From Bacteroidales bacterium (GTDB lineage Bacteria; Bacteroidota; Bacteroidia; Bacteroidales; G3-4614), in assembly GCA_017935575.1 (NCBI GenBank), contig JAGBHI010000017.1:1-36529 (forward strand): DNA of 36,529 nt. The letters are read 5' to 3'. The notes under the pieces are model-generated. The model did no database searches, was not told the origin of the DNA, and was given only the letters and a program-made list of their open reading frames with translations. The translations under genes were made by a program, and so were the position numbers. Shown piece after piece: positions 64 to 25,486 of this stretch. How positions within the stretch are numbered: the stretch's first letter is position 1; the number at the start of each line of letters is the position of its first letter.

Positions 64-112
64 ATATTTTTACCACTTATTGCCATTCTCTAAATATTTT
101 CTTTGCATTGTA
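64..112 (+). promoter_or_regulatory. Phage-locus promoter motif, copy 1 (scaffold/capsid operon)
   Basis: The upstream box ATATTTTTACCA (64-75) and the downstream box TTTGCATTGTA (102-112) are separated by exactly 26 bp. The same two boxes with the same spacing lie upstream of the portal gene (25438-25486, 22 of 23 positions identical) and, on the minus strand, of the tail-hub gene (25414-25366). TTTG at 102-105 coincides with a Bacteroidota-type -7 box (TTTCTTTG, one mismatch to TAnnTTTG). The upstream box sits just before the place expected for the -33 box. It could be an alternative sigma-factor promoter or an activator site plus a weak -7. The gene start at 158 lies 45 bp downstream. Confidence 0.72.
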
Positions 113-143
113 AAAACACCACAATAGTGTGGTAAAATACAAT
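107..143. promoter_or_regulatory. Operator-like or leader-hairpin inverted repeat before the scaffold gene
   Basis: A nested inverted repeat is visible: ATTGTA (107-112), then ACCACA (118-123), loop ATAG, TGTGGT (128-133), then TACAAT (138-143). It begins inside the downstream promoter box and ends 14 bp before the ATG at 158. It could bind a dimeric repressor or form an RNA hairpin near the start of the transcript. There is no T-tract after it, so it is not a normal intrinsic terminator. Confidence 0.5.
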
Positions 144-157
144 TAACAAATTAATCT

Positions 158-913
158 ATGGAAAAATTTTTAGAGAAAAACGAAACTCTGCCCAATGGCT
201 GGCGTGGAGTGGTGGTAAAGAGGCTTACAAAGCATTACCCCGAAAAAAGTTTTGAGACCGACGACGAACTGTTTGAAACGCTTGCAGAGTTTGATGCTCG
301 CTTAGATGAGCGTTTTGAGCGTTTGCGTAACGACCAATGCAAACTTGCAGGAATTTTTAACTCAAATCCGAAAATGGCAGGATTTATCTCTTCGGTTATT
401 GAGGGAGAGGATCCTCTTATTGCCTGTGTCAGATTCTTTGGAGGCGATGTGTTGGAGTGTGCTCATGACGAAAATCGTTTGTCGCAACTTCGTCGCGAGA
501 ACGATGCTTATTTAGAGCGTATGGCTTCTGCCGAAAAATCACGAAAAGAGATTGAGGAGAATTGGAATTTGAGCGAGAAGTCAATAAAACGCTTTAAAGA
601 GGCAAAGGGTATGACCGATGAAGAGTTTGAGCTCTTTATGGAGAAGGTTTGCCACTTGTGCGAGCACGTATTTATGTGCGACTTCAGCTTTGAGATTCTT
701 GATACTCTTTTCAAAGGTGTGAACTACGACACCGATGTTGATATTGCCGAGCAAACCGGAGAGGTTAAAGGTCGCAATCAGAGAATTATTTTTGATAAAG
801 AGCATAACTCCGATGCTGATGTCTCTCCATCATCTTTCTCAAAAGAGGAGAGCAACGATAATCTTACTCCTATGTTTGGTTTACGTCGCAGAAAAAGTGT
901 CTGGGACTTATAA
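158..913 (+). CDS. Probable capsid scaffold protein (phage)
   Basis: A 251-residue soluble protein, rich in Glu, Lys and Arg, lies directly before the major capsid gene, the usual place of a scaffold. Predicted coiled-coil or helical stretches run from about residue 40 to 60 and from 105 to 165. The last 40 residues are Ser/Asp-rich and end in a basic patch (LRRRKSVWDL), which resembles the capsid-binding tails of phage scaffolds. No enzyme motif is seen. The ATG at 158 is the first in frame after the promoter motif. The assignment rests on position, length and composition; I do not recognise a named family. It could instead be a minor head protein. Confidence 0.55.
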   Translation: MEKFLEKNETLPNGWRGVVVKRLTKHYPEKSFETDDELFETLAEFDARLDERFERLRNDQCKLAGIFNSNPKMAGFISSVIEGEDPLIACVRFFGGDVLECAHDENRLSQLRRENDAYLERMASAEKSRKEIEENWNLSEKSIKRFKEAKGMTDEEFELFMEKVCHLCEHVFMCDFSFEILDTLFKGVNYDTDVDIAEQTGEVKGRNQRIIFDKEHNSDADVSPSSFSKEESNDNLTPMFGLRRRKSVWDL

Positions 914-918
914 TTTAA

Positions 919-1036
919 GTTTTTAGTTGTTGGTTTTCAACGTCGTTGCCCCTTCGGGGTAGTTTTTAGTTGCAACTTCGTATCTCTTATACAACTTATT
1001 AGCCCATGGGCTAATAATACTACCAACTAACAACTG
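919..1036. repeat. Modular palindromic repeat between scaffold and capsid genes
   Basis: The 185-bp gap begins with AGTTTTTAGTTGTTGG (919-934) and the CCCC-TTC-GGGG mini-hairpin (949-959). A second AGTTTTTAGTTG follows at 961-972. A perfect 22-bp palindrome centred on AGCCCATGGGCT occupies 996-1017, and the module ends with CTAACAACT near 1027-1035. The first 50 bp match the modules at 21336-21386 and 30191-30241. The remaining gap to 1099 is AT-rich with no clear promoter. Confidence 0.7.
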
Positions 1037-1098
1037 TTTAAAAAAAATCACATCACAAACAGCTTCTTAATTATTAATTATTTAAACACTATTTTATT

Positions 1099-2487
1099 AT
1101 GAAAAAGATTTTGAATTTTATTAAAGAAAATCAAATTTGGGTTTTATTGGCTCTTTTTGTTATTGCCCTTGTGGTAATGTATGTTTCAAATTGTTCGCTT
1201 TATGCGTTGGCAGCTGTTATTCCGGCTGTAAGTACAGGAAAAATTGTTACGGGCGAACCTCTTACTCGCGACTTGGCTACGCGTAACAGTTCTGACCTCA
1301 TAAAGAGCGAGATTGATAAGCGTATAACAAAGATACGCCCTATGTCAACTCCTATTGACCAACTTTCGCGTTGGGCCGGTGCCAGAAAAGCAAACTCAAT
1401 GGTAGTTGATTACTACTCTGTTGATATTAAACCTACAAAGGCGGTTTTGAGTGTTGCTTATACCGAACCTACATCTGATACGGTTACTTCTGCTGCTCAA
1501 AAGGTTACTATAAGTACAAGTAATAATGATATTTTTGAGGTGTCTGAGACTATCCTTGTTCAAGGTGTAAAGGGGTATGAAAACGACGGAGTTACTCCAT
1601 CTAAGTCTGATTTGGTTCTTTACATAACAAGTAAAGAGGAGAACGGCAACTTGAATGTCTATGCTATTAATGGTAAAAAGATTGGTTCGGTTGAGAAGTG
1701 TGTTCCTTCAATCCCTGCTTCAAAAACTTTGATACGAATGGGACGTGCGGCAACCGAGTTAGATGTTCAAACTGCTCAGTTTGAGGCTTTGCCTGTTAAG
1801 GAACAAAACAACTGCCAAATTTTTAAAATACAAGTTGAGCAATCTACTTTCCAAAAAATTGCAGCCAAAAATGTGCCTTGGGATTTTTCAGATTCTGAGG
1901 AGGCTGCTATTTACGATATGCGTTTGGGTATGGAGAAGACCTTTATGTTTGGCGTCAAAAATACCCTTTACGACTCTCGTAAAAAAGAGAACGTTATGCT
2001 TACCGGCGGTATTTGGTGGCAAGCAGGTAAGGAGTATGAGTTTGACGCCTCAAAGGAGCTTACTCAAAACGACCTTATTGATATGATGAAAGAGGCATTT
2101 ACCGGTAATGGTGGTAATAAACGTAAAGTGCTTATTGGAGGTAGCGACTTTATCGGTCGTATCAATAAACTTGATGTAACTAAGGTTATAAGTGCTGACG
2201 ATGAGTATGTTAAGTGGGGTATCGATTTCTCTGAAATTCGCTCAAAATTTGGTAAGTTCTACATCTTGTACTCTGAGGTGTTTGACGATTGCGGTATGAG
2301 CGATTACGGCTTTGCTTTTGACCCTGAGTTTATTACCCGCTGGGCGCATGTACCTTTCGGACATCAAAAACTTGACCTTAAGAGTGCCGGTATCCGCAAC
2401 ACCGATGCTGTGGTTATGACCGAAGCAAGTTGTTTAACTCTTCGTTATCCTGCCGCTCATATGCGTATTGTTCCCAAACAGGGTTAA
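1099..2487 (+). CDS. Phage major capsid protein with an N-terminal membrane segment
   Basis: A 462-residue protein that I place in the HK97-fold major capsid family of Bacteroidota short-tailed phages (DUF5309-like). From about residue 47 the sequence runs GKIVTGEPLTRDLATR, then KIRPMSTPIDQLSRWAG, the usual beginning of such capsid proteins. The C-terminal half has the typical region with KVLIGGSDFIGRINKLD and ends near AAHMRIVPK. What is odd is an extra N-terminus of about 46 residues: basic start MKKILNFIKENQ, a hydrophobic segment at about 13-31, and a second mildly hydrophobic stretch to 45. This predicts membrane attachment or an export-like signal. No internal Met near residue 47 offers an alternative start, so the extension is in frame and probably translated. 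It is downstream of the scaffold gene, as in most phages. Confidence 0.82.
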   Translation: MKKILNFIKENQIWVLLALFVIALVVMYVSNCSLYALAAVIPAVSTGKIVTGEPLTRDLATRNSSDLIKSEIDKRITKIRPMSTPIDQLSRWAGARKANSMVVDYYSVDIKPTKAVLSVAYTEPTSDTVTSAAQKVTISTSNNDIFEVSETILVQGVKGYENDGVTPSKSDLVLYITSKEENGNLNVYAINGKKIGSVEKCVPSIPASKTLIRMGRAATELDVQTAQFEALPVKEQNNCQIFKIQVEQSTFQKIAAKNVPWDFSDSEEAAIYDMRLGMEKTFMFGVKNTLYDSRKKENVMLTGGIWWQAGKEYEFDASKELTQNDLIDMMKEAFTGNGGNKRKVLIGGSDFIGRINKLDVTKVISADDEYVKWGIDFSEIRSKFGKFYILYSEVFDDCGMSDYGFAFDPEFITRWAHVPFGHQKLDLKSAGIRNTDAVVMTEASCLTLRYPAAHMRIVPKQG

Positions 2488-2564
2488 TTCTCTTTCTAAG
2501 GTTGTCGGCTTACGTGCCGACAACTCTTTAGATTATTTATAAATCAAGTTTATAATTATTGTTT

Positions 2565-2945
2565 ATGAAAAGATATAAGACTAATCATGGAAATCTTACG
2601 ACATTTATAAGAGTGGGTGATAAGAATGTGAGAATTAAATTTATTTCGGGTAACAACGTATATGGATATTTTGAAACAGATAATATTGATATTCAGAAGG
2701 CTCTTGAAAAGGATTTGTCTTTTGGGGTAAAATTCTTTCTTGATGATACAGTTCAACAAAAAATAGAGAAGCCATTGAATTCAGATGTGCTCTATGTTAA
2801 TGAGGTAACATCGTGGCAACAGGCAAAAAAATATCTGAATAAAAAACCATATGGCATATTGTATGCCGAGATGAAAACACCTGATGACATCAGGTCTGTG
2901 GCAAATAAATTTAAATTGGTATTCAATAATATTGAGGGTTGGTAG
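2565..2945 (+). CDS. Small phage structural protein, function unknown
   Basis: 126 residues if the ATG at 2565 is used; a TTG two codons earlier is also open. It lies between the capsid and adaptor genes and stops 1 bp before the next start. The N-terminal half looks like a small beta-rich domain (VRIKFISGNNVYGYFETD), followed by IDIQKALEKDLSFGVKFFL, a pattern I associate with small structural proteins of Bacteroides phages. The C-terminal half (VTSWQQAKKYLNKK to the end) looks like a compact helical domain. There is no signal peptide. It could be a decoration, head-completion or assembly protein; nothing in the sequence decides between these. Confidence 0.5.
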   Translation: MKRYKTNHGNLTTFIRVGDKNVRIKFISGNNVYGYFETDNIDIQKALEKDLSFGVKFFLDDTVQQKIEKPLNSDVLYVNEVTSWQQAKKYLNKKPYGILYAEMKTPDDIRSVANKFKLVFNNIEGW

Positions 2946-2946
2946 T

Positions 2947-3576
2947 ATGCTATATAGTAAAGATCTTTTAATTGAACTTGTAAAAATAAATATGCAGGAG
3001 GGCTTTTCGCCTATTGATGCAACATTGGAGCAAGTGTCGGGGCCAAGAATTGGTAGCTACATTGAACAAAAACTACCAGAGGCAATTATGCAGGTTTTTT
3101 GCGATGCACCTGTCTATCTATTGGAGCAGTGTGATGCATCTTCCATTTTGACTCCAAACAAAAATCAAAATGGCAGTGGAGAGGTTATTCTGCCTGATGA
3201 TATGTTACGCTTAACCCTCTTTAAAATGAAGGGTTGGGAGCGTGCCGTAACACGATTTTATCCTGCCGATTCTCCTACTGCAGAACTTCAAACAAATGTT
3301 TATACTATGGCAGGTAGGGCAAAGCCTGTAGCGATACTCTCTTTATCTCATGAAGGTGAGAGAGTCTTAAAATATTACTCTTTACCACCGGAGGTTCAAA
3401 ATCATGAAATAGAAGATGCCCTTTATGTGAAAATTCCTGATATCTCAAAGCCTATTGAGATTAATGAACTGCTTCTGCCCTCAATTACCTATTTGACAGC
3501 TGCTATGGTTTTTGATATAATGGGCGAAGTGGAGCGTGCTGCTATTATGCGAGCAAATATAACAATCAAACAGTAA
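2947..3576 (+). CDS. Probable head-tail adaptor protein
   Basis: The ATG at 2947, 1 bp after the preceding stop, gives 209 residues; an earlier in-frame ATG at 2884 overlaps the upstream gene and is less likely. Blocks such as LPDDMLRLTLFKMKGWERAV and the later LQTNVYTMAGRAKPVAILS are typical of a conserved protein in short-tailed Bacteroidota phages, where it follows the capsid genes and fits a head-completion or adaptor ring role. The C-terminus (YLTAAMVFDIMGEVERAAIMRANI) looks helical, as in connector proteins. It would sit between the portal, encoded about 22 kb away, and the tail hub. Confidence is moderate because the fold is inferred by position and pattern. Confidence 0.6.
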   Translation: MLYSKDLLIELVKINMQEGFSPIDATLEQVSGPRIGSYIEQKLPEAIMQVFCDAPVYLLEQCDASSILTPNKNQNGSGEVILPDDMLRLTLFKMKGWERAVTRFYPADSPTAELQTNVYTMAGRAKPVAILSLSHEGERVLKYYSLPPEVQNHEIEDALYVKIPDISKPIEINELLLPSITYLTAAMVFDIMGEVERAAIMRANITIKQ

Positions 3577-3582
3577 ACTATT

Positions 3583-6060
3583 ATGAAAAATTCTATTGAT
3601 ATTGATAAAGATAATCGTTTCTTAGGTTATCATTATGGTTTGGGTAAAGTTCTTGCTCAGCCTATTTCTCCTCAACCCGGAATGTTTTTTATAAATGGCG
3701 AAACAAATTCGGTTTGGATGTGGGATAGCTTAACTAAAATGTGGATTGATACAAACCGAGTTGATAGCGGACTAAAGGGTATGCTAACTGATGAGAAAGG
3801 TAATTCTCCTGCTGATTTTGTGCCGTCTCAAAAAGTTGGAGTAAAGGAGAGCTATTTTTATGTTGCCAAAACAGATATTGCAAAGGATTTTGTTTTTACT
3901 CATTTTAAGAATGGGAATGATTCTGTTAGTGTAAATGTATTGTCAACTTCTATTGTTGTTCTTTATTGGAATGGCACTTACTGGGAGAAATCTCTTGTTC
4001 CAATGAATATCAATTTGAAAGAACTTGCCAAAGAGTCTGATTTAAGGGCAGAGATAGATAGAGCTTCTAAAAATGATGCAACTTTTGAGACCTATATTAA
4101 TGGCTCGGAGGATAGCTTTTCAACCTCTTTTGTTACTACTTATTCTGGAAGAGATCTTCCTTATGTTATTCCTGAAGGTTCTGTAATATATTTAAGTGGT
4201 GATATCACAGAGATATTGGCTTATTCTGATAAAAATTCAGAGGTTTATAGCGTAGTTAAAAATGGAGATATTGCCGATAGAGATATTACATATATAAAAA
4301 ATAGGTCGGAACTTGGCAATCTGACACTCTCTTTTGCTTATAAAGGAATAATCCCGGAGATAAAAGATGCGAATAAAAGATTGACATCAGCCGAGAATAA
4401 TTTGGGTGATTTAGGTTCTGTTATTTATGGCGGGAGCAAAGATTATAATTTAAATATTATTACCTCTCCTGCTTATATTGATCTTCAAGAGCGTGTAACG
4501 GGATATTTTAAAGGTTACAAGGTCGATTTATCTCAATATGTAGGTAAATATGACAAAGTCTATTTCCGAGGAGCAGAGTGGGATTATCCTTCTGATGGTT
4601 CTCATATTACACGAGGATTAATATTGGATAAAGATGGTAATATTGAAGCTATTGCACCATTCGTGTCAGAAAGGAGTAATGGTTGGCAATCTTTACCTAT
4701 TACTGAAAACTCTAAGACCTTATGGGCTACATATTGTACTAAGCCTGAGGGAGGGGAAGTTTGGAATCCTGAATATGTTTTGATGCAAAGTGAGGGTATT
4801 GAAGGTATTGTCTCAACCGTTGAAAAGTTAGATAATGGTGTAGATGTTATTCTCCCCTCTGATATATATATTCTTAAAGGTAGGGTGTCGCAGCTATTTT
4901 TTAGAGGATTCATAAGATCTTCATCACCTTATAAATATGATATAAAGGTATTGTGCGATATAGGCAAAACTTTCTCTCGTTATTATGAGATTGATGATAA
5001 AGAGGGTGTTATTGCAGAGGGAGATTATCCAATTAAGATTGTGGTAAGAAATGATAAATTGAAAGTGTTAGGTATAGCAGAAGCAACCATTCATCTTATT
5101 TCTCAAACCTCAATAAAATCTCCGTTAAATGTTTTATGTGTTGGGGATAGTACAGCCGTATCGGGTGATTGGGTTGCTGAATTGAGGAGAATGATTAATG
5201 ATGATAATTTGAACTTTGTTGGGCGTAAAGAGGGTAATGCTGAGAGTGTAAAATTAGAAGCGACAGGAGGTTGGAGCTGGAATAGTTTTATAACTCCTCA
5301 AAATGATGCAATAAGATTTGATATCTCTAATTGTATAGGTACACCAACTAAAGGAGGTGTGCTATCTATTGGAAGTTCAAAATATACTATAATAGAGATA
5401 AATCTTACCGAAGGCTCCGGTAATATATTGTGTTCAGGAGTAGTTCCAACGCAAAGTTCAGGAGTATTGATAGGTGAGAATATTGAAATGACTTATACCT
5501 CTTGTCAAACCGAGAAATTTGCTCCATTTTATAATAATGGCAAAATTGATTTTAAGTATTATGCCGATAACTATTGTAATGGTAATATAGATATAATGGT
5601 TGTTCATTTGGGAGTAAATAATTCATTATGGGAGGACTCAGATACAGACTACTCTATTGCTCAAGCTAAAAAGTTTATTGAGGGATATTTTGTTGATTTC
5701 CCAAATGGCAAGATGATTGTATCGGCTATTCCTATGCCCGATGATGGTATAAATGTATATGCAAACTCTTATGACGATAATAATATTAATCGTTACGGAA
5801 CAATCTTCTCTTTCTTGAGATATAATAAAGCATTATATGATTTGGTGGAGGGGTTAAAGAGCAAATACAATATCAGTTATGCTCCAACAAATATCTTTTT
5901 TGATACTGATTATGGCTATCCCAAAACTCATAAGAGTGTAAATACTCGTGTTACAGATTACAAAGAGATGATTGGCATAAACGGAGTACACCCTACGCAA
6001 AAAGGATATTATATGTTTGCCGACGGAATAGCTCCTGTATTCTCTAAAATGGTTGTTTAA
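3583..6060 (+). CDS. Tail fibre or spike with C-terminal SGNH esterase domain
   Basis: 825 residues, the largest protein of the cluster. The N-terminal part (about 1-150) resembles a virion-attachment region and carries tail-fibre-like phrases (GETNSVWMWDSLTKMWIDT). The middle (about 150-510) is beta-rich with repeated glycan-binding-like segments. The C-terminal part is an SGNH/GDSL hydrolase: nucleophile block GDST at about 521-524, the LGVNNS block at about 675-680, and NGVHPTQKGYY near 800-810 with the catalytic-type His. The Asp usual in the last block (DxxH) is Asn here, so catalysis may use another acid or be weak. Such domains deacetylate surface polysaccharides, so a role in recognising or trimming the capsule of a target cell is inferred. 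It follows the adaptor gene by 6 bp. Confidence 0.72.
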   Translation: MKNSIDIDKDNRFLGYHYGLGKVLAQPISPQPGMFFINGETNSVWMWDSLTKMWIDTNRVDSGLKGMLTDEKGNSPADFVPSQKVGVKESYFYVAKTDIAKDFVFTHFKNGNDSVSVNVLSTSIVVLYWNGTYWEKSLVPMNINLKELAKESDLRAEIDRASKNDATFETYINGSEDSFSTSFVTTYSGRDLPYVIPEGSVIYLSGDITEILAYSDKNSEVYSVVKNGDIADRDITYIKNRSELGNLTLSFAYKGIIPEIKDANKRLTSAENNLGDLGSVIYGGSKDYNLNIITSPAYIDLQERVTGYFKGYKVDLSQYVGKYDKVYFRGAEWDYPSDGSHITRGLILDKDGNIEAIAPFVSERSNGWQSLPITENSKTLWATYCTKPEGGEVWNPEYVLMQSEGIEGIVSTVEKLDNGVDVILPSDIYILKGRVSQLFFRGFIRSSSPYKYDIKVLCDIGKTFSRYYEIDDKEGVIAEGDYPIKIVVRNDKLKVLGIAEATIHLISQTSIKSPLNVLCVGDSTAVSGDWVAELRRMINDDNLNFVGRKEGNAESVKLEATGGWSWNSFITPQNDAIRFDISNCIGTPTKGGVLSIGSSKYTIIEINLTEGSGNILCSGVVPTQSSGVLIGENIEMTYTSCQTEKFAPFYNNGKIDFKYYADNYCNGNIDIMVVHLGVNNSLWEDSDTDYSIAQAKKFIEGYFVDFPNGKMIVSAIPMPDDGINVYANSYDDNNINRYGTIFSFLRYNKALYDLVEGLKSKYNISYAPTNIFFDTDYGYPKTHKSVNTRVTDYKEMIGINGVHPTQKGYYMFADGIAPVFSKMVV

Positions 6061-6079
6061 CAATTAAATATTTAAAATT

Positions 6080-6808
6080 ATGACAGACTTTAATCCTACA
6101 ATAACGCCAATGGTATATACAAAAAGCGATGTAGATGCTATTATTAAAAACAAATTGCAAGAGAACCTTATAAGTTGGAATGCCTCTTTTAATATTGATA
6201 ATATTATTAAGCAAGGAATTTATTATATAAGCGGAGAGAGAATATCATTTACAGATAATCTTCCTATATTGAATACAGGGTATATAAGCGGACAAATTAC
6301 CGTGTTAGATGCTAATGGCTGTATTACTCAATATTTGAAACTAACCAATGCAGGTGGTAGTGAGGGTAAAGAGTATATCCGTACCTATACAAGTGGTAGT
6401 TGGAGTACTTGGAGGGAGTTGCAAAGCACAACTGTGTTTAACAATGGTATTGATGATGCGAGTTTGAAGAATTATGAGGATAACGGCTACTACACAGGTG
6501 CTATACTTAATACAATAGGTTCGGCTACAGGTTCGGATTTGTCAAACTTATATCAAATAACAGAAGCATTCAAGGTTGATATTAAAACCTCAAAGGGTTA
6601 TGCTCACTTACCCTCAGGTACTTTCTTTACAATGAAAGTGATGAATAACTATGCTGTAGTAAAAGCATCGCAAAGTTGGGGTGCATCGGCATTTCATACC
6701 ATCACCCAAAAAGCGGATATTCAATTATGGGACGGAACATTCCTTTGCGTACAACGTAGCAGAATAGCGGATAGGGGTTGGACTAATTGGAAAATAATAA
6801 ATATATAA
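6080..6808 (+). CDS. Tail fibre-like protein with pyocin-knob repeats
   Basis: 242 residues. An N-terminal 40 residues with a short helix (YTKSDVDAIIKNKLQ) precede two pyocin-knob-like units. The first has GKEYIRTYTSGSWSTWRELQ at about 95-115, and the second ends with QRSRIADRGWTNWKIINI at the C-terminus. This W-x-x-W motif is common in receptor-binding tips of tailed phages and tailocins. It starts 19 bp after the esterase fibre gene and probably makes a second, or accessory, receptor-binding protein of the same particle. There is no signal peptide, as expected for a virion component. Confidence 0.65.
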   Translation: MTDFNPTITPMVYTKSDVDAIIKNKLQENLISWNASFNIDNIIKQGIYYISGERISFTDNLPILNTGYISGQITVLDANGCITQYLKLTNAGGSEGKEYIRTYTSGSWSTWRELQSTTVFNNGIDDASLKNYEDNGYYTGAILNTIGSATGSDLSNLYQITEAFKVDIKTSKGYAHLPSGTFFTMKVMNNYAVVKASQSWGASAFHTITQKADIQLWDGTFLCVQRSRIADRGWTNWKIINI

Positions 6809-6813
6809 CAATT

Positions 6814-7197
6814 ATGAATTGGGGAGATATAGTAACCGTAGTAAGTACGGTTCTTGCCTCGTTGGGCGGATTTGAGTTTATGAAATGGCTTTTTACTCGA
6901 AGAAGCAATAAGAGAATTGCTGCTGCACAAGCCAATTCAAAAGAGATTGAAGTTGAAACCGATGAGTTTCATCTGTTACGTGAGAGATTGGAGTTGTCAG
7001 ATAGGCAACTCCTTGAAAAAGAGCAAAGATTTTATGAGCAGACGTTGTTGGTGCGAAAGCTCAATAAACAGTTGCTTGAAAAAACGAATGAGAATGGTGC
7101 TCTGTCGGCACGAATAAGCTCATTGGAAGCCGAGCGTGCCATGAAGCTTTGTGAGCGACGTGGCTGTGAACGACGAGAACCTCAAAGCGGATATTAA
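6814..7197 (+). CDS. Membrane-anchored coiled-coil phage protein (holin/spanin-like)
   Basis: The ATG at 6814 gives 127 residues; an upstream ATG at 6787 overlaps the previous gene. One membrane segment (about 5-25) is followed by a basic turn (FTRRSNKR) and a long charged coiled coil (about 35-108). The tail carries two cysteines in CERRGCERREPQ. This plan is common in proteins next to lysis genes of Bacteroides phages. It fits an inner-membrane spanin or a holin accessory, but no function is proven. The gene is followed by a lone repeat half-unit and the DUF5675 gene, so it belongs to the lysis end of the cluster. Confidence 0.55.
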   Translation: MNWGDIVTVVSTVLASLGGFEFMKWLFTRRSNKRIAAAQANSKEIEVETDEFHLLRERLELSDRQLLEKEQRFYEQTLLVRKLNKQLLEKTNENGALSARISSLEAERAMKLCERRGCERREPQSGY

Positions 7198-7201
7198 TAT
7201 A

Positions 7202-7217
7202 GTTTTTAGTTGTTAGA
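7202..7217 (+). repeat. Solo repeat half-unit AGTTTTTAGTTGTTAG
   Basis: Sixteen bases identical to the start of the module at 30191-30206 and nearly identical to those at 919 and 21336. It occupies nearly the whole 21-bp gap between two lysis-region genes and ends 1 bp before the ATG at 7219. Confidence 0.6.
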
Positions 7218-7218
7218 G

Positions 7219-7650
7219 ATGGAGATAAAGGTAAAACGATTATACATTAAAGAGGAGTACACCATTGGCAAAATGTATATCAATGGTATGTGCTTCTGTG
7301 ATACTTTAGAGGATAAAGTGAGAGACCTTAATAAAGATGGCGATTTAAGTGATAATGGCGAAGGTAAGGTTTATGCCCAAACAGCTATTCCTTATGGTAA
7401 ATATAAAGTTATTGTCTCTTTCTCCCCCAAATTTAAACGCATGTTGCCAAGATTATTAGATGTTCCTCACTTTGAAGGTATTCTTATTCATCGGGGTAAT
7501 ACTGCTAAAGATAGTGCCGGTTGTATATTGGTCGGAGAAAATAGGGTAAAAGGTCAGCTCTTAAATTCTACTCCATACGAAAAGAGGTTAATCGCCATCT
7601 GTCTTAATGCCCAATTGCAGAATGAAGATATAACAATTGAAATATGTTAG
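7219..7650 (+). CDS. DUF5675 family protein, probable lysis enzyme or accessory
   Basis: The ATG at 7219 gives 143 residues; a TTG three codons earlier is open but lies in the repeat. The hallmark of DUF5675 is visible: early FCDTLED, a turn IPYGKYKV, and a core with IHRGNTAKDSAGCILVG in which His (about residue 91) and Cys (about 101) are conserved. This His/Cys arrangement resembles the active site of L,D-transpeptidase-like folds, so a peptidoglycan-acting role is often supposed, but this is inference. It lies between a membrane coiled-coil protein and a candidate spanin, where an endolysin would be expected, and no classical lysozyme is seen in the window. Confidence 0.72.
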   Translation: MEIKVKRLYIKEEYTIGKMYINGMCFCDTLEDKVRDLNKDGDLSDNGEGKVYAQTAIPYGKYKVIVSFSPKFKRMLPRLLDVPHFEGILIHRGNTAKDSAGCILVGENRVKGQLLNSTPYEKRLIAICLNAQLQNEDITIEIC

Positions 7651-7656
7651 ATTAAT

Positions 7657-8076
7657 ATGAGACTGAAATATAACAGATATATTATGCTTAGTTTGAGTAT
7701 GGTAGTCGTGTTAATCGCTTTTTATGGTTGCTCTGTAAAAAAGAGTCTGAAAAGTGTGAGTGATACGATATATATTACTCAAAATAGAGAGATTAAAAGA
7801 GTGATTAAAGATACTCTTAGAGATACGACAATAGTATTGGAATATATTCCCGATAGTGTGGGGGAGTGGAAAGTATCAAAAAAGACTGTAACAACGAGGG
7901 TTAAAAATCTTTCGGGTAAAGAAGAGAAGATTATGTCGGAAGAGATACAAAAACAGGAAACCAAAACATTATCTGAAACTAAAAACCGAGGTGATAATAA
8001 AAAGTGGATATGGCTTTTTGCAGGAGTTTTAATATATCTTGCTATTACTGTTATCTTATTGATAAGGTTCAGATAA
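7657..8076 (+). CDS. Candidate unimolecular spanin (lipoprotein signal plus C-terminal membrane segment)
   Basis: 139 residues. The N-terminus is a signal-like hydrophobic stretch (about 9-24) ending in FYGC, a degenerate lipobox with Cys25. The middle is a charged periplasmic region of about 85 residues that may be extended or beta-rich. The C-terminus has a second hydrophobic helix (about 117-137, KWIWLFAGVLIYLAITVILLI) and a basic end. An outer-membrane lipid anchor plus an inner-membrane helix in one short protein is the plan of u-spanins such as phage T1 gp11, which fuse the two membranes at lysis. It is the last gene of the phage cluster and starts 6 bp after the DUF5675 gene. The function is inferred from topology only. 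Confidence 0.55.
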   Translation: MRLKYNRYIMLSLSMVVVLIAFYGCSVKKSLKSVSDTIYITQNREIKRVIKDTLRDTTIVLEYIPDSVGEWKVSKKTVTTRVKNLSGKEEKIMSEEIQKQETKTLSETKNRGDNKKWIWLFAGVLIYLAITVILLIRFR

Positions 8077-8087
8077 ATATTGAAGAT

Positions 8088-8865: not shown

Positions 8866-8870
8866 TATCC

Positions 8871-9284: not shown

Positions 9285-9293
9285 ATTATCCTA

Positions 9294-10870: not shown

Positions 10871-10895
10871 CTATTTTTTATTGAGTTATAAAAGA

Positions 10896-11765
10896 ATGAA
10901 AATAGCCCTTTACGGAAACAGTTATCAAAAGGCAAAGAGCGAGCATGTCCTGTTGCTTTTTGAGGCTTTGCGCAAATATGATATTGAACTTTTCATAGAA
11001 AAAAAATATTTTGAGTTTTTATCAGAGCAGAAGGTTTATATCCCTTCTGCACAAACTTTTGATGTTTTAGAGTATAACGTTGATGTGGTTTTAAGTGTTG
11101 GCGGTGATGGGACATTTTTACGTACTGCCGAGCAAACAGCAGGGCTAAACATACCTATACTCGGTATAAATGCAGGGCGTTTGGGTTTCCTTGCCGATGT
11201 CTCAAAAACTGAGATTGAAACAGCCGTAGAGGAACTTATGAACGGAAACTACAATATTGATGAGCGTACAATGTTGCAGATTGAGGTTGATGGATTACCC
11301 TCAGATTGCACACCATATGCACTTAACGAGGTAGCAGTTTTAAAACAAGATTCGTCGTCAATGATAACCATAAATGCGACGCTCGGAAATGACTTTTTAA
11401 ATAGTTATCAGGCCGACGGACTGATTGTTGCAACGCCAACAGGTTCAACAGGTTACTCTTTGAGCGTAGGCGGTCCGATACTTATGCCTGAAAGTGCCGA
11501 TTTTGTTATATCGCCTGTTGCGCCACATACACTAAATGTTCGTCCTTTGGTTATCCCCGATAATCAAGAGATTAAACTCCTTGTAGATAGCCGTACAGGT
11601 AATTACCTTGTTGCTTTGGACGGACGCTCATATATAATGCCATGCGATAAGGAGATAAAATTGAGTAAAGCTCCATTTAAAACCTTGGTTGTTAAAAGAA
11701 CAAATCACACCTTTCCGGTAACCCTTCGCAACAAACTCATGTGGGGTGTCGATAATCGGAATTAG
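10896..11765 (+). CDS. nadK: NAD kinase
   Basis: The ATG at 10896 gives 289 residues starting MKIALYGNSYQ, the usual start of the family; in-frame sequence further upstream overlaps the promoter. It phosphorylates NAD to NADP with ATP or polyphosphate. The GGDGTFLR motif (about 69-76), the NAGRLGFLADV stretch (about 89-99), and ATPTGSTGYSLSVGGP (about 184-199) are all present and normal. The C-terminal part contains the usual VAPHTLNVRPLVIPD. It is divergent from pdxJ, an arrangement seen widely in Bacteroidales. Confidence 0.95.
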   Translation: MKIALYGNSYQKAKSEHVLLLFEALRKYDIELFIEKKYFEFLSEQKVYIPSAQTFDVLEYNVDVVLSVGGDGTFLRTAEQTAGLNIPILGINAGRLGFLADVSKTEIETAVEELMNGNYNIDERTMLQIEVDGLPSDCTPYALNEVAVLKQDSSSMITINATLGNDFLNSYQADGLIVATPTGSTGYSLSVGGPILMPESADFVISPVAPHTLNVRPLVIPDNQEIKLLVDSRTGNYLVALDGRSYIMPCDKEIKLSKAPFKTLVVKRTNHTFPVTLRNKLMWGVDNRN

Positions 11766-12544: not shown

Positions 12545-12575
12545 TTTGTAGTTAAGAGATAATTATATATCTTTG
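12545..12575 (+). promoter_or_regulatory. Promoter of the rimP-nusA-infB operon
   Basis: TTTG at 12545-12548 and TATCTTTG at 12568-12575 are 19 bp apart, an exact match to the Bacteroidota sigma-ABfr pattern. Transcription should start near 12580-12585, just before the hairpin at 12593. Confidence 0.75.
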
Positions 12576-17216: not shown

Positions 17217-17240
17217 TAGATACGTTAATAGAGTTACCTG

Positions 17241-17738: not shown

Positions 17739-17765
17739 TTCTCTTAAAGAGGGGAGAAGTTTACT

Positions 17766-19226: not shown

Positions 19227-19243
19227 CCCTATATTGAATAATT

Positions 19244-19999: not shown

Positions 20000-20005
20000 A
20001 AGAGT

Positions 20006-21331: not shown

Positions 21332-21335
21332 TATC

Positions 21336-21440
21336 AGTTTTTAGTTGTCAGCTCCTAACCCCTATGGGGTAGCTGTTAGTTTTTAGAAAATAAATCCTAA
21401 CAAAAAATATAAATGCTAACAACTAACTAACAATTAACAA
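21336..21440. repeat. Modular palindromic repeat inside the suf operon
   Basis: AGTTTTTAGTTGTCAG at 21336-21351, the mini-hairpin CCCCTATGGGG (about 21359-21368), and CTGTTAGTTTTTAG to 21386 match the module at 30191-30241 and, less closely, 919-972. Further CTAACAACTAACTAACAA lies at about 21416-21433. It fills the gap between sufD and sufS without a visible promoter, and the hairpin could affect read-through into sufS. Confidence 0.7.
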
Positions 21441-21446
21441 CAAAAG

Positions 21447-22661
21447 ATGGATATTGACAAAATAAGAGAAGAATTTCCAATATTAGCACAAGAGGTATAT
21501 AAAAAGCCCCTTGTATATCTTGATAATGCAGCTACAACCCAAAAGCCAAAAGTTGTGATAGATGCAATATCAAATGCCTATTGCACCATAAATGCCAATG
21601 TGCATAGGGGAGTTCACCATTTGAGTCAGCTATCAACCGAAGGACACGAAGGCGGGCGCGAAAGAGTTCGTCAGTTCATAAATGCAAAATCGACAAAAGA
21701 GATAATATTTACTCGCGGAACAACCGAAAGCATAAATCTTGTAGCATCATCATTTGGCGAGGCATTCTTAAATGAGGGAGATGAAGTTATAATCTCTGCA
21801 ATGGAACACCACTCGAACATAGTGCCATGGCAGATGTTGGAGAGTAAAAAGGGTATAAAGCTAAGGGTAATACCCATAACCCCAAATGGAGAATTAGATA
21901 TAGATGCATTCCGTAAACTCTTAAATGAGCGAACAAAATTGATATCTGTTGCACACGTATCAAACGTATTGGGAACAATAAACCCCATAAAGGATATAGT
22001 TGAGGAGGCTCACAAGATAAATGTTCCCGTGCTTGTTGATGGAGCGCAAGGAGCGCCACATATAAAAATAGATGTGCAGGCTTTAGATGTTGACTTCTAT
22101 GTCTTTTCAGGGCATAAAATGTATGCACCAACAGGTATAGGAGTGTTGTACGGAAAAGAGAAGTGGCTTGAAGCTATGCCCCCTTACCAAGGCGGAGGAG
22201 AGATGATAGCAAAAGTAACTTTTGAAAAAACCACATTTAACGAACTCCCATTTAAATTTGAGGCAGGAACCCCCGACTACGTAGGGGTAATGGCAATGAC
22301 TGCTGCACTTGACTATATTGAGAATGTAGGAATAGAAAATATTGCAGCACACGAAACCGGGTTATTGCAATATACAACCTCAAAACTTAGTGAGATAGAA
22401 GGAATAACAATCTATGGCAATGCCACTCATAAAAGCGGAGTAATATCATTTAATGTAGATGGCATACACCCATACGATATAGGAATGTTATTAGATAAAC
22501 AGGGAGTAGCTGTCCGCACAGGACACCTATGTGCCCAACCTCTTATGGATTTGCTCGGCATACCCGGAGTGGTGCGAGCATCGTTTGCACTATACAATAC
22601 ACACGAGGAGTGCGATAAATTTATAGTAGCACTACAGCGAGCAATAGAAATTTGCAGGTAA
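21447..22661 (+). CDS. sufS: Cysteine desulfurase SufS
   Basis: 404 residues, a PLP enzyme of group II. It removes sulfur from cysteine and holds it as a persulfide for SufBCD. The family marks are LDNAATTQKP (about 24-33), the His in EHHSNIVPW, the PLP lysine in SGHKMYAPTGIG (about 221-232), and the active-site Cys in RTGHLCAQPLMD (about 357-368). It is the last suf gene here. A SufE or SufU partner is not found next to it, where the convergent phage hub gene lies instead. Confidence 0.95.
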   Translation: MDIDKIREEFPILAQEVYKKPLVYLDNAATTQKPKVVIDAISNAYCTINANVHRGVHHLSQLSTEGHEGGRERVRQFINAKSTKEIIFTRGTTESINLVASSFGEAFLNEGDEVIISAMEHHSNIVPWQMLESKKGIKLRVIPITPNGELDIDAFRKLLNERTKLISVAHVSNVLGTINPIKDIVEEAHKINVPVLVDGAQGAPHIKIDVQALDVDFYVFSGHKMYAPTGIGVLYGKEKWLEAMPPYQGGGEMIAKVTFEKTTFNELPFKFEAGTPDYVGVMAMTAALDYIENVGIENIAAHETGLLQYTTSKLSEIEGITIYGNATHKSGVISFNVDGIHPYDIGMLLDKQGVAVRTGHLCAQPLMDLLGIPGVVRASFALYNTHEECDKFIVALQRAIEICR

Positions 22662-22676
22662 ATATCTTTTAAATTT

Positions 22677-22709
22677 GGGACTGTGTTAACTTTTTGAATG
22701 CACAGTCCC
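22677..22709. terminator. Hairpin between sufS and the phage hub gene
   Basis: GGGACTGTG (22677-22685) pairs perfectly with CACAGTCCC (22701-22709) across a 15-nt loop, placed between two convergent genes. No strong T-tract follows on the plus strand, and the minus-strand tail AAATTTAAAAG is only AT-rich. It is probably a shared terminator. Confidence 0.55.
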
Positions 22710-22732
22710 ACTTGTCTATAGTAATATCAACT

Positions 22733-25345
22733 TTAGCTTAAATTTTTATATTTACTCTCAAATACCAAATATAATCCATTAAAAGTTAACCCTTCTTTGG
22801 CAATGCCTCCCATCTCAAGACGGAAATATTTGAAAGGTGGAGCAGTTATTGGTATTCTTACACCATCGCAATATGACGAACTTATTACGAATTTGCCAAT
22901 TGAAGTAAAACCTCTATCGGGAAGATTTGAGGCAAGAATATTAATACTCATATTATCTTTAAGAGAATCAATATCTCCTTTCAGAATTATTTCTCTTAAA
23001 TGTTTATATGATATAGGAATTCCTTTTATTGCTCTTGTTCTTAATAAAAATGGTTGAACCGAGTTTTTTACCTCATTTGAATAATTGAATAAAGCCCCTT
23101 CCGAGTCGCAAATATATTGTAGCGGATAGTTGTTTATAAAACCATTTAAAGGAGTATTGGTAAATTGTTGTCTGCTCCACTCTCCTGTATCTAAATTTAA
23201 AGAGAAGATATAGCTATATCCGTTTTTTAAAAATAGTACTTCATTCCCATTATAGTTGTAGCCTGCTTGTGAGGTTGAGATAAACTCTTTAAAGTTGTTT
23301 AAGTATTCTTGATTTGATACAATAATGTTATTCTCTCCTTCAATGCTAATATCTTTAATAATATCGTCTCTATTTAGCCCAAAAGCCGATATCATAGCTG
23401 TTTCACTACCGTTAAGAATATGTATCCCTTTTGTTGAGACAAAAACAATAGCTTTATCAATAGATGTTATACTTTTGCTTGATATGGCAATATCTCGGCT
23501 TATAGGGAGTGTTGAGCTATAAACTATGCCATTGTCGCCTTGTTGCATTGTCCAAATACCATCTTCACAAAATACGTATAGAGGAAACTCTCCATACCTG
23601 CCTTGTGATAACTCTTTTGTTACGGTAGCAATTTTAATAATCTTTGAGTTTGAAATAGTATAACTTTGCTCTTGAGGGAAAAATATTGGATTTTCAATCT
23701 TTGAAACTTTAATCATATTCGGGAAAGATTCATAGCAGAACCTATCTCCAACAGGAATATCTTCATTATAAATTTGAGGCTCTATTGCAGAGAAATCCGA
23801 TTTTAAATAGTATGCACAGTTTTCAACCTCCGATGCTGTAAGAGGCAGAGATATGTAGTAATTATTACCATTATCCTCTTTGAACCAAAGTTCCATCTTT
23901 ATAGCTCTACTATCGGGATACGATATATATGGCGATATATATCCGCTATTGCCAACAATACTATCTTTTTCAACTGCAAATATTCCTGTAGTTGTATTAA
24001 TTTCTACTCTAATATGACATTGCATCTGAGGCTTAAGTGAAAATTCGGGAGTAATATTGTTGTAACTCTTTTGTTCTGTATTAAAAGAGAACAAACTGAA
24101 TGGGAGTGGTAAGTATCTGCGAATTCCACCCAAATGTAACATTGAATTATATGTGTGTGTTACAGCTCCTGATATTCTATAATGAGAATAATTATCAATG
24201 GGTAAAATCTCTTGTGTTGCAAGGTTCTCTAACTCAAAATCAATATTAACCTCTCTTAAATTACTTTCGGGGTATAAATTATCATCTCTCAAATCAGATA
24301 ATTTATAAGATGCAATCTTGAAAAATAGAGTCTCTTCCGTAACTCTCTTCTGTAGTTCCTCATCATTTAGGTAGTCGCATTTCATATCTACATCAAAACA
24401 ACTTAAATTATCTCCTGCAGCTGATACGTCTTTAATAAAAGATAAACCCCTTTTAGGATCGTTACCCATCAGGAATATGGGTTTAGAAATAAAAATATCA
24501 ATACTACTTATAATATCGTCCCACTCTTTAGATGGTACTGAGGCTGTATCAAACATAAGAGAGTATATATTCTCATTGTAATAAAAGTATGGGATATATG
24601 CCGTTTCAGTATTAGAATAAATTTTCAGTGTATGCATTTCCCATCCTCTTAAACTATAATTGGGTATCATAAGAATTGGAGCTGAAGGTTTAATATATGT
24701 ACCGTCGTATAACTTTAGTGCATATCTGACCATAAAAGGCAATGCAAATTTTTTTGCTTTAGAGGCAGAGATATTTACTTCGTTATATTTGCTATAGATA
24801 TATTCAATTAATCTATTATGGTTTGATACTTTAACAGCAATATCACCAAACATGGTTTCGGGTAGATAAATATTTCTATCCATTAAGTTTATGTTGGTAT
24901 GTTCATTAAGAGAAAATCTTATATCGGGAGTCTCTATATCCCCCATATAGCTATATCTGTTTTTATAAAACAGAGCATAATAACAGCCATTTTCGCAAAT
25001 TATGATAAGTATATTTCCTATACTCTCAAATTGAATAACATTTTTAATTGCAGCAATAAGTTGCGGTTCTGAAATTGCCGAATTGTCAATAATACTTCCT
25101 TCCCAATATACCCCATCGTTATTATATGATATTATGTTTGAGTAATTCATATTTTTATGGATATATTGACATACTCGTTTCTCTGAATTTTTGTTTAAGA
25201 GTTTTGCCGGAGTGCCACATACTTCTAAAGCTCCATTTCTCTTTTTAAAATTAACCATATCGCAACACTCTCCATCGTTGCAAATTTCGGAAGGGCACAT
25301 CTTTGAGATGCCCGATAAAACAATCTCCTTGCATATCTTTTCCAT
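22733..25345 (-). CDS. Phage tail hub protein, beta-propeller-like
   Basis: The start is taken at 25345 (MEKICKEIVLSGISK), giving 870 residues; an ATG ten codons earlier would lie across the promoter motif. The N-terminus, with a cysteine-containing stretch (CPSEICNDGECCDMVNF) and then NGALEVCGTPAKLL, follows the plan of podovirus tail hub proteins such as P22 gp10, which open with a list of local parameters. Beta-rich blade-like repeats occupy the middle and later parts (for example VFCEDGIWTMQQGDNG, then AIVFVSTKGIHILNG). The C-terminus has HLREIILKGD and a final domain ending in FNGLYLVFESKYKN, again hub-like. The similarity is architectural and no alignment was run. It is very AT-rich, convergent with sufS and divergent from the portal gene. 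Confidence 0.55.
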   Translation of the reverse strand: MEKICKEIVLSGISKMCPSEICNDGECCDMVNFKKRNGALEVCGTPAKLLNKNSEKRVCQYIHKNMNYSNIISYNNDGVYWEGSIIDNSAISEPQLIAAIKNVIQFESIGNILIIICENGCYYALFYKNRYSYMGDIETPDIRFSLNEHTNINLMDRNIYLPETMFGDIAVKVSNHNRLIEYIYSKYNEVNISASKAKKFALPFMVRYALKLYDGTYIKPSAPILMIPNYSLRGWEMHTLKIYSNTETAYIPYFYYNENIYSLMFDTASVPSKEWDDIISSIDIFISKPIFLMGNDPKRGLSFIKDVSAAGDNLSCFDVDMKCDYLNDEELQKRVTEETLFFKIASYKLSDLRDDNLYPESNLREVNIDFELENLATQEILPIDNYSHYRISGAVTHTYNSMLHLGGIRRYLPLPFSLFSFNTEQKSYNNITPEFSLKPQMQCHIRVEINTTTGIFAVEKDSIVGNSGYISPYISYPDSRAIKMELWFKEDNGNNYYISLPLTASEVENCAYYLKSDFSAIEPQIYNEDIPVGDRFCYESFPNMIKVSKIENPIFFPQEQSYTISNSKIIKIATVTKELSQGRYGEFPLYVFCEDGIWTMQQGDNGIVYSSTLPISRDIAISSKSITSIDKAIVFVSTKGIHILNGSETAMISAFGLNRDDIIKDISIEGENNIIVSNQEYLNNFKEFISTSQAGYNYNGNEVLFLKNGYSYIFSLNLDTGEWSRQQFTNTPLNGFINNYPLQYICDSEGALFNYSNEVKNSVQPFLLRTRAIKGIPISYKHLREIILKGDIDSLKDNMSINILASNLPDRGFTSIGKFVISSSYCDGVRIPITAPPFKYFRLEMGGIAKEGLTFNGLYLVFESKYKNLS

Positions 25346-25365
25346 AATTATAAAATTAAATATTA

Positions 25366-25414
25366 TACGATGCAAAACTATTAAGGTGATATATGTGTGT
25401 AATGTTATAAATAG
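25366..25414 (-). promoter_or_regulatory. Phage-locus promoter motif, copy 2 (tail hub)
   Basis: Read on the minus strand: CTATTTATAACA (25414-25403), 26 bp, then TTTGCATCGTA (25376-25366). It matches the portal copy at 20 of 23 motif positions with identical spacing. The -7 box is TAGTTTTG (25380-25373), a full match to TAnnTTTG. It ends 20 bp before the start codon at 25345. Confidence 0.7.
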
Positions 25415-25437
25415 GTAAATAATCTAAATCACAAATC

Positions 25438-25486
25438 ATATTTATACCATATGAGGAGCAGAATATTTGGGTTCATTTGCATTGTA
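25438..25486 (+). promoter_or_regulatory. Phage-locus promoter motif, copy 3 (portal)
   Basis: ATATTTATACCA (25438-25449), 26 bp, then TTTGCATTGTA (25476-25486), ending 32 bp before the portal ATG. It differs from the scaffold copy at a single motif position. Its upstream box is separated by 23 bp from the upstream box of the divergent hub copy, so the two face away from each other. Confidence 0.72.

What the first reader, a model, noticed from the sequence alone, without database searches (positions are those of the whole stretch)
64..25486. Identical two-part promoter motif at three separate phage gene starts
Seen directly: [AC]TATTT[AT]TA[CA]CA, 26 bp, TTTGCAT[TC]GTA occurs at 64-112 (+, before scaffold/capsid), 25414-25366 (-, before tail hub) and 25438-25486 (+, before portal). 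Pairwise identity is 19-22 of 23 positions with the same spacing in all three. The housekeeping promoters I identified (12545-12575, 27483-27512, 30343-30373, 31108-31138, 31655-31685) do not have it. TTTG in the downstream box is the Bacteroidota -7 core; the upstream box lies just before the normal -33 position. The inference is that one dedicated sigma factor or activator turns on physically separated phage genes together.
Basis: seen in the sequence. Interest (0 to 1): 0.93.

Follow-up and report, generated by a model that had tools for sequence, protein, structure and literature searches.

The report
Shared switch for scattered phage genes
A two-part DNA signal with a fixed 26-base gap sits before most pieces of a phage particle whose genes lie apart on the chromosomes of several gut bacteria, which suggests that the hosts keep and switch on a domesticated, gene-transfer-agent-like particle.

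Summary
In detail: three sites, identical 26-bp spacing, 19-22 of 23 positions shared, none in 100 shuffles. It is one corner of a larger regulon. Capsid and terminase genes are in all 28 portal-bearing genomes that I followed from six Bacteroidales families (one, G331, looks like an ordinary prophage), under strong purifying selection, with modules from adjacent (G005) to 432 kb apart, usually with housekeeping genes between them. Record names include Barnesiella, Candidatus Caccoplasma and Candidatus Gallibacteroides. In every family the promoters share one architecture: an upstream box of about 18 bp, 26 bp, then TTTG, the housekeeping -7 element. The box differs between families but is shared by unlinked promoters within each, as expected of one co-evolving DNA-binding factor. 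A spacing-blind test put TTTG exactly 26 bp after the box in 93 of 130 upstream regions and at any other distance in at most 2. A CI-like S24 repressor co-occurs (26 of 28). A phage-conserved two-repeat protein, with a CI-type operator before it in some genomes, is my candidate activator. Best reading: a domesticated podovirus of gene-transfer-agent type, of which I found no report in Bacteroidota in the papers I could search. DNA packaging, co-expression and the activator are untested.

The parts
64..112 (+). bipartite promoter site 1 (ATATTTTTACCA-N26-TTTGCATTGTA) before the capsid operon
   Evidence: the orthologous p158 upstream passes in 27 of 27 examined (counted; G282 gave no p158, G331's match is weak)
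158..913 (+). p158, scaffold-position protein, first gene of the capsid operon
   Evidence: phrog_22323, 1.7e-32, unknown function; directly before the capsid gene in the loci where it was found
1099..2487 (+). major capsid protein, SU10 type
   Evidence: PF17236 1.5e-46; found in 35 of 36 genomes searched
2559..2945 (+). small conserved virion-operon protein
   Evidence: same position in many relatives
2884..3576 (+). head-tail connector-position protein (role inferred)
   Evidence: phrog_22135 4.7e-21, unknown function
3583..6060 (+). fibre-like protein; a weak GDSL-type match in its C-terminal part; mostly the N-terminus is conserved
   Evidence: PF13472 E 0.02, below cut-off; in most relatives only about residues 1-160 match
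6080..6808 (+). second fibre-like protein
   Evidence: phrog_3971 8.3e-10
6787..7197 (+). small membrane-type protein, holin candidate
   Evidence: phrog_32423 1.7e-13, unknown function; weak holin match E 0.28
7210..7650 (+). DUF5675 protein, endolysin candidate
   Evidence: PF18925 2.1e-29; 'endolysin' is an inference from its place in the operon
7657..8076 (+). Rz/spanin-like candidate
   Evidence: weak phrog_1804 match E 0.074
22733..25375 (-). virion/tail protein divergent from the portal gene (likely start is the ATG near 25342)
   Evidence: phrog_32516 1.2e-70; weaker virion and tail matches; partner of the portal gene in f1, f60, f68 and f88
25366..25414 (-). bipartite promoter site 2 (CTATTTATAACA-N26-TTTGCATCGTA) before the tail gene
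25438..25486 (+). bipartite promoter site 3 (ATATTTATACCA-N26-TTTGCATTGTA) before the portal gene
25519..27408 (+). P22-like portal protein
   Evidence: PF16510 3.4e-37, phrog_156 1.7e-67; in 8 of 8 genomes of the family

Best explanation
The three sites are promoters of a regulon that makes a domesticated, podovirus-derived particle of gene-transfer-agent (GTA) type in several Bacteroidales families. Each promoter keeps the housekeeping sigma factor's -7 element (T(T/A)nnTTTG, usually TTTGC). Where the -33 TTTG would lie there is the 3' end of an upstream box of about 18 bp, ending exactly 26 bp before TTTG and read by one dedicated activator whose specificity has drifted between families together with its boxes. 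Shown here: the sites, the fixed spacing, the gene set, its modular spread, purifying selection, largely host-like trees, conserved terminase motifs, and co-occurrence with a CI-like S24 repressor. Inferred: the -7 and -33 assignments; that one activator binds all boxes; that CI, released on DNA damage, controls the activator (my candidate is the phage-conserved two-repeat protein); that particles are made and package host DNA.
For: Sites and rarity. Capsid and terminase in 28 of 28 genomes of the six families; the portal was the criterion by which the 20 genomes outside the window's family were picked, and it is in 8 of 8 inside it. Modules up to 432 kb apart on one contig (G359). Same promoter architecture in all six families: 114 of 130 upstream regions pass a leave-one-gene-out matrix and 93 of these have both the CA end of the box and TTTG; spacing-blind test 93 of 130 at exactly 26, at most 2 at any other distance from 10 to 45. 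78 of 876 ORF upstreams pass the family matrices, 76 of them before genes of this set, one place counted twice. dN/dS 0.014-0.108 in 22 of 24 values, 2 saturated. Shared tree splits with infB 14-16 of 21-24, random maximum 2-3; terminase versus portal 21 of 21. Terminase motor and nuclease motif residues invariant in 24 rows. CI repressor in 26 of 28 against 1 weak hit in 40 portal-negative genomes, at E <= 1e-20. CI-type operator before the two-repeat gene in G336 and L333.
Against: No expression, particle or packaging data. The activator was not found in the window's own genus: no two-repeat homologue in the held f1 loci, which cover only part of those genomes. 16 of 130 upstreams fail at p<=0.05: 10 small-ORF regions, mostly of f22, f88 and f109 (two of the ten, G391 and G270, do have a site), 2 f88 and 2 f22 terminases misread or without a site, and others. 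Dispersal varies: in G005 the capsid and tail/portal loci are adjacent, and in G074 terminase and portal are 3 kb apart. Phage replication-type genes (Lin1244-like, and an ATPase related to one in prophage L077) lie behind a site in G002, G003 and G004, and a tyrosine recombinase with its own site follows the terminase in G006. G331 lacks the repressor and a portal site and groups with a contiguous phage. One prophage (G141:C32) has two sites of the same N26 architecture with its own box, so the system may be phage-derived and no sign of domestication. Relaxed scans have background: 137 hits against 22 control hits in 15 genomes and 49 against 15 in 7 genomes, with G066 no better than control in both.
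Confidence: 0.75

Rival explanations
1. Decaying prophage remnants that still carry the late promoter of an extinct phage; no present function.
For: All genes are of phage origin. A prophage in G141 shows the same N26 architecture with another box before p158 and the virA-type gene.
Against: Open frames with dN/dS 0.014-0.108 in 22 of 24 values, capsid and terminase in 28 of 28 portal-bearing genomes, largely host-like trees, and promoter boxes that change in concert are the opposite of decay.
Confidence: 0.06
2. A dedicated (ECF-type) sigma factor, not an activator, reads both halves.
For: One rigid spacing and two boxes look like a -33/-7 pair.
Against: The downstream half is the housekeeping -7 (T(T/A)nnTTTG); the upstream box is about 18 bp long, longer than a usual sigma region 4 contact (recalled knowledge). 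I did not search the genomes for sigma factor genes.
Confidence: 0.15
3. A functional domesticated particle that does not move DNA: a killing particle or a carrier of the toxin-like proteins in the same regulon.
For: Sites also precede variable proteins with a conserved N-terminus and secreted, immunity-like neighbours.
Against: The large terminase is conserved with its motor and nuclease residues, which a non-packaging particle would not need.
Confidence: 0.2
4. A temperate phage or satellite whose modules have come apart or that still moves.
For: Relatives exist with the modules contiguous (L071, L077, L260, L341). Two modules are adjacent in G005. Replication-type genes and a recombinase stand behind sites in some f1 genomes.
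Against: Terminase and portal trees agree fully (21 of 21 splits) and largely follow infB; neighbours such as suf genes are kept beside the tail/portal pair in most f1, three f60 and one f68 genome; modules are up to 432 kb apart.
Confidence: 0.08

Closest known systems
FpGTA of Faecalibacterium (PMC12946183; abstract, passages and section 9 read)
   Same: Podovirus-like structural genes, split into two operons (about 125 kb apart in one complete genome), conserved across a genus, gut commensal host.
   Different: Bacillota, not Bacteroidota; here three structural loci in the window's genome (capsid; tail/portal; terminase/virA) plus a repressor locus and a toxin-like locus with a site; no shared promoter element is described in what I read; FpGTA has particle, proteome and packaged-DNA evidence, this has none.
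RcGTA and CcGTA with activators GafA, GafY/GafZ (PMC9638019 and PMC11150451, abstracts and outlines read)
   Different: Alphaproteobacteria, with a main gene cluster; my candidate activator matches phrog_27246 (unknown function); its relation to the Gaf proteins was not tested.
Bacteroides phages BF1-TP2, BS-TP4, BKO1-TP3 (PQ571263, PQ571277, PQ571269) and IMG/VR contig L341
   Same: Closest phage relatives found: capsid 43-45% and terminase 45-48% identical in the three phages; L341 capsid 65%.
   Different: Genes contiguous in BF1-TP2 and L341, two-repeat gene beside the terminase; no N26 site before the six genes tested in BF1-TP2 nor directly before p158 in L341.
Housekeeping (sigma-ABfr) promoters of Bacteroidota (PMC7366714, passages read)
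   Same: -7 element TAnnTTTG.
   Different: The place of the -33 TTTG is taken by the end of a family-specific box.

Membership tests
gene transfer agent | phage-derived head, portal, tail and packaging genes kept intact | tested here: met
   capsid and terminase in 28 of 28 portal-bearing genomes, no stops inside, some cut by contig ends; motor residues invariant in 24 rows
gene transfer agent | vertical inheritance and purifying selection in the host lineage | tested here: met
   dN/dS 0.014-0.108 in 22 of 24 values, 2 saturated; shared splits with infB 14-16 of 21-24; exception G331
gene transfer agent | cannot mobilise itself: no replication or integration module | tested here: inconclusive
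   not searched systematically; replication-type genes behind a site in G002, G003, G004 and a tyrosine recombinase after the terminase in G006
gene transfer agent | particles package random host DNA | not testable with these tools
   needs particle purification and sequencing
gene transfer agent | transfer of genes to recipient cells | not testable with these tools
   needs culture work
sigma-ABfr promoter | -7 TAnnTTTG | tested here: met
   T(T/A)nnTTTG in the 114-site consensus, the second place more often T than A
sigma-ABfr promoter | -33 TTTG | tested here: not met
   at the usual distance (recalled) the place holds the conserved CA end of the box and spacer bases with little information
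CI/LexA-type repressor | HTH plus S24 peptidase domain | tested here: met
   own genome: PF00717 2.8e-16; PF12844 5.1e-07, 29.9 bits against a cut-off of 30.2; in G002 33.4 bits
transcription activator (two-repeat protein, phrog_27246) | binds the promoter box and activates | not testable with these tools
   candidate by operator, position and phage conservation only
transcription activator (two-repeat protein, phrog_27246) | DNA-binding fold | tested here: inconclusive
   all-helical model, pLDDT 93.8; no significant fold match; best Z 3.2, 10.1 A over 95; Pax and Myb domains at Z 2.0-3.0, 3.1-3.2 A over 49-50

The most novel reading that the evidence does not exclude
A new class of gene transfer agent in the phylum Bacteroidota, old in a clade that includes gut Barnesiella, its podovirus genes spread over the chromosome and held together by a co-evolving promoter code: a CI-type damage switch releases a two-repeat activator that fires all boxes at once, and the same code has recruited tailspikes, a recombinase and toxin-like proteins as accessory cargo.
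Probability: 0.5. Interest if true: 0.92.

Novelty: new variant of a known kind. Interest (0 to 1): 0.85.

Why it matters
If right, an important gut order carries an inherited particle that could move host genes between cells, which would bear on how Bacteroidales exchange DNA. The promoter box gives a sequence handle to list the parts of such a spread-out system, which tools that look for clustered prophage genes could miss. It also offers a natural case of one DNA-binding protein and its unlinked sites changing together across six families, so the code between them can be tested directly. Hosts with cultured members (Barnesiella, Coprobacter) make it testable.

Tried and rejected
Ordinary prophage: disfavoured because modules are up to 432 kb apart, with housekeeping neighbours, and trees are largely host-like; not excluded for every genome, since two modules are adjacent in G005 and G331 looks like a prophage. 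Remnant: disfavoured by selection and concerted box change. Terminase by Pfam PF03237: matches in 3 of 28 genomes, none in the own one; the own terminase was found only with a related prophage's protein. The first named-genome scan, with the portal, found no relative; the capsid alignment gave 137 relatives, 80 kept. In IMG/VR the capsid alignment found 4.

The small ORF next to the repressor as activator: considered because it lies behind a box in f1, f60 and f68, but its model (pLDDT 87.5) shows no HTH; fold searches gave nothing significant (best E 0.016 viral, 0.062 PDB; best Z 3.9, 3.9 A over 79); I saw no convincing box there in f22, f88 and f109, and no such ORF in G001 and G007. CI itself as box reader: disfavoured because its putative operator half (TTACCATA, judged by eye) looks much the same across families while the box changes.

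Extra hits judged chance or coding: secDF in G263, a second prophage in G000:C49, 4 of the 10 relaxed hits in the own genome. Solved structures: no homologue of the terminase at E <= 0.01; for the two-repeat protein only one hit at E 0.32. No paper names BF1-TP2 in the library.

Limits: 393 genomes were drawn from the order, 34 had a portal match, and most misses are not listed, so prevalence inside f22, f60, f68, f88 and f109 is not known; I followed 28 genomes of six families. The f26 genomes carry a compact capsid-portal locus and got only a quick promoter scan. Shuffles keep base composition only. Family matrices were trained on the sites they found; leave one gene out. In one search the box was chosen without the spacing, but the training boxes had been chosen with it. 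Related genomes are not independent. The consensus uses the 114 of 130 rows with p<=0.05, some of them poor. Trees: infB 29, capsid 29, terminase 25 and portal 26 genomes. My confidence in the main reading was lowered from 0.78 to 0.75 on recheck because of the adjacent modules in G005 and the replication-type genes behind a site.
Full report
Observation. The three sites are as described. With up to 3 mismatches the window holds these 3 and 100 shuffles hold none; the own genome holds these 3 against 1 for the reversed control.

The genes. The capsid operon (158-8076) and the divergent tail/portal pair (22733-27408) lie about 15 kb apart in the window, with housekeeping genes between them (nusA, infB, sufB and a sufS-type aminotransferase by Pfam; tonB, exbD, exbB, pdxJ, nadK, rimP and others named by me from the translations). 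Capsid is SU10 type, portal P22-like. The portal is in 8 of 8 genomes of the window's family and in 34 of 393 genomes of the order. I followed 28 portal-bearing genomes of six families (f1, f22, f60, f68, f88, f109); capsid and terminase are in all 28 (the G003 and G270 portals and the G003 terminase are cut by contig ends). Three of the 28 (G002, G141, G237) also hold a distant second copy of each gene, which in L071 and L077 belongs to a prophage. Distances between modules vary: capsid and tail/portal loci are adjacent in G005; terminase and portal are 3 kb apart in G074; the three genes lie within 49 kb in G263, over 280 kb in G296 and 432 kb in G359. suf genes lie beside or near the tail/portal pair in most f1 genomes, in G391, G263 and G066 of f60 and in G074 of f68. 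Relatives with the genes together are L071, L077, L072 and BF1-TP2.

Vertical inheritance. NG86 dN/dS for capsid, terminase and portal lies between 0.014 and 0.108 in 22 of 24 values (8 genome pairs per gene; two undefined because synonymous sites are saturated), against 0.037-0.103 for infB. Trees share 15 of 24, 14 of 21 and 16 of 23 splits with infB (random maximum 2-3); terminase and portal share 21 of 21. All six families are monophyletic in every tree except f60 in the three phage-gene trees. The cause is G331, whose capsid and terminase group with IMG/VR contig L341, where the genes are contiguous; G331 also lacks the repressor and a portal site. I treat it as a prophage, which leaves 27 genomes. 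Residues of the terminase ATPase and nuclease motifs (KARQWGGST, D460, D469, E521, D621, D622; motif roles recalled) are invariant in 24 rows without G331.

The promoter. Upstream regions of p158, tail, portal, terminase, the ejection-type gene virA and a small ORF next to a repressor gene were scored by leave-one-gene-out matrices; 114 of 130 pass at p<=0.05. By gene: p158 27 of 27, portal 25 of 26, tail 16 of 16, virA 14 of 14, terminase 18 of 22, small ORF 14 of 25; with the box ending in CA and an exact TTTG as well: 26, 24, 7, 14, 14 and 8, in all 93 (several tail sites have TTTA or TTCG). Boxes by family: f1 ATAAATTTAMCA, f60 ATAATTATCRCA, f68 ATAAATATCRCA, f88 GATTTTATAACA, f22 CATTCTATCGCA, f109 ATGAAGCTGCCA and relatives. 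When the box alone was placed, without the spacing, TTTG followed at exactly 26 in 93 of 130 and at any other distance from 10 to 45 in at most 2. Of 876 ORF upstreams in the loci, 78 pass; 76 precede genes of this set (one place counted twice through overlapping loci), one a tyrosine recombinase, one an unrelated gene. The 114-site consensus shows T(T/A)nnTTTGC; the housekeeping consensus is TAnnTTTG at -7 and TTTG at about -33 (PMC7366714, passages). In the window's genome further sites lie at G000:C88 (terminase, a TerS-like ORF, virA), G000:C68 (toxin-like gene) and G000:C40 (small ORF). A relaxed pattern with 1 mismatch gives 10 hits in the own genome against 3 for the control, 137 against 22 over 15 genomes; another gives 49 against 15 over 7 genomes; G066 is no better than its control in both. 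In four genomes of the Barnesiella family the family pattern gives 7, 19, 6 and 8 hits against 0, 2, 1 and 0, among them a tail-gene homologue, tailspike-like and unknown paralogous genes.

The switch. A CI-like protein with an S24 peptidase domain lies in one place per genome, divergent from the small ORF and near a gapA-type gene (named from translations; not so in f22). It is in 26 of 28 genomes of the set, in 1 of 40 portal-negative genomes (weak, 34%, with a stop) and in 3 of 5 f26 genomes, at E <= 1e-20; the six families may be one clade, so this is association, not proof. A dyad close to TATGGTAAAATTACCATA occurs in this intergenic region: a strict pattern found it 6 times, in 5 repressor loci (four of f109, and G066), in 148 kb, and twice in 2.5 Mb of other held loci; weaker versions elsewhere I judged by eye. 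One of those two lies before a two-repeat protein gene in f68, which had not been looked for. A profile search of held ORFs then found this family in the related phages, in f60- and f68-type loci and in Muribaculaceae-labelled records, but not in held f1, f22, f88 or f109 loci. In phages it sits just before the terminase, at times with one gene between. In five f60/f68-type copies it stands apart; the dyad is strict in two (L125, L333), degenerate by eye in two (L095, L099) and not evident in one (L097), and none has an N26 site. 19 of 21 members match phrog_27246, unknown function. The model is confident and all-helical; weak matches to Pax and Myb DNA-binding domains are below any useful threshold. 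It could also be a small terminase subunit.

Origin of the promoter. The prophage in G141 has two sites with its own box, CCAAAAATAACA and CCAAAAACAACA, each 26 bp before TTTG, before p158 and the virA-type gene, and none before its tail, portal, terminase or two-repeat gene. No such site was seen before the genes tested in L077, L072 and BF1-TP2, nor directly before p158 in L341. So the architecture may be phage-born and later kept and extended.

Other genes behind sites. Toxin-like proteins, a tyrosine recombinase after the terminase in G006, and in G002, G003 and G004 a Lin1244-like gene (PF14297, 5.2e-12) with an ATPase gene 84-86% identical to one in prophage L077. The last two kinds would fit an element that is not fully domesticated.

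Literature. I read listings only. 'Gene transfer agent' with Bacteroidota (15 papers), Bacteroidales (13) and Muribaculaceae (0), with Bacteroidetes or Barnesiella (15 of 2,333 listed), with podovirus-like or Bacteroid (10 of 54 listed), domesticated prophage with host names (12 of 507 listed) and Barnesiella with phage terms (1) showed no report of such an element in what was listed; only open-licence papers are held. One GTA paper mentions RcGTA-like terminases in viruses of Salinibacter, a Bacteroidota member (PMC7947584, passage). The nearest system is FpGTA (PMC12946183).

Names. Calling f60 Coprobacter-like rests on G331's title, and f26 Muribaculaceae-like on the similar loci; both are uncertain.

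Verdict. The promoter regulon is real (about 0.97). One dedicated factor: about 0.85. Packaging of host DNA: about 0.6. The two-repeat protein as the activator: about 0.45.

Noticed in passing
G000:C68, L230:1343-2464 (site at 1277); also L215, L217, L219: Variable proteins with a conserved N-terminus (LVKDPxKLYWDEENxVYMxYSPISDRF) behind the same promoter, followed by secreted 184-191 aa proteins; looks like a toxin/immunity array or particle cargo.
   Followed up: partly
L214:4099-5425 (G002), L215 (G003), L216 (G004): A Lin1244-like gene and an ATPase gene behind a site; the ATPase is 84-86% identical to one in prophage L077.
   Followed up: partly
L228:2098-2865 (G263), site at 2019: A protein with a JAMM-like HTHP...SPGDM stretch (recalled motif; no Pfam match) behind a site, preceded by repeated lipoprotein-like genes.
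   Followed up: partly
L170:7556-8755 (G006); same type of site at G004:C41:8985 and G003:C24:14975: Tyrosine recombinase gene with its own bipartite site directly downstream of the terminase in G006; the site recurs in two other f1 genomes.
   Followed up: partly
L164:11924-11985: Two face-to-face, overlapping bipartite sites between a TerS-like ORF and virA, also seen in G002-G006.
   Followed up: no
G359 (Barnesiella family), L361, L365, L369, L372: About ten extra pattern hits; several looked at precede paralogous 150-186 aa proteins and one a beta-helix tailspike-like protein.
   Followed up: no
f26 loci L074, L075, L076, L078, L079 and part of L303-L340: Genomes with a compact capsid / small gene / short portal locus and the terminase elsewhere or missing; the portal of G032 has four in-frame TGA.
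   Followed up: partly
L331:11941-15675: In one Muribaculaceae-labelled genome the portal, a GGTAATTTTACC dyad, the two-repeat gene, a 148-aa ORF and gapA are adjacent, linking the regulator to the gapA locus of other families.
   Followed up: partly
window 35217-36529: Two adjacent genes that look like the two parts of an IS3-type transposase (integrase core PF00665 2.7e-24 and an HTH gene).
   Followed up: partly
G000:C88, L164 near 11623-11677: TTTG lies only 12 nt before the annotated terminase start codon in six of eight f1 genomes, the own one among them, which would give an almost leaderless mRNA.
   Followed up: no
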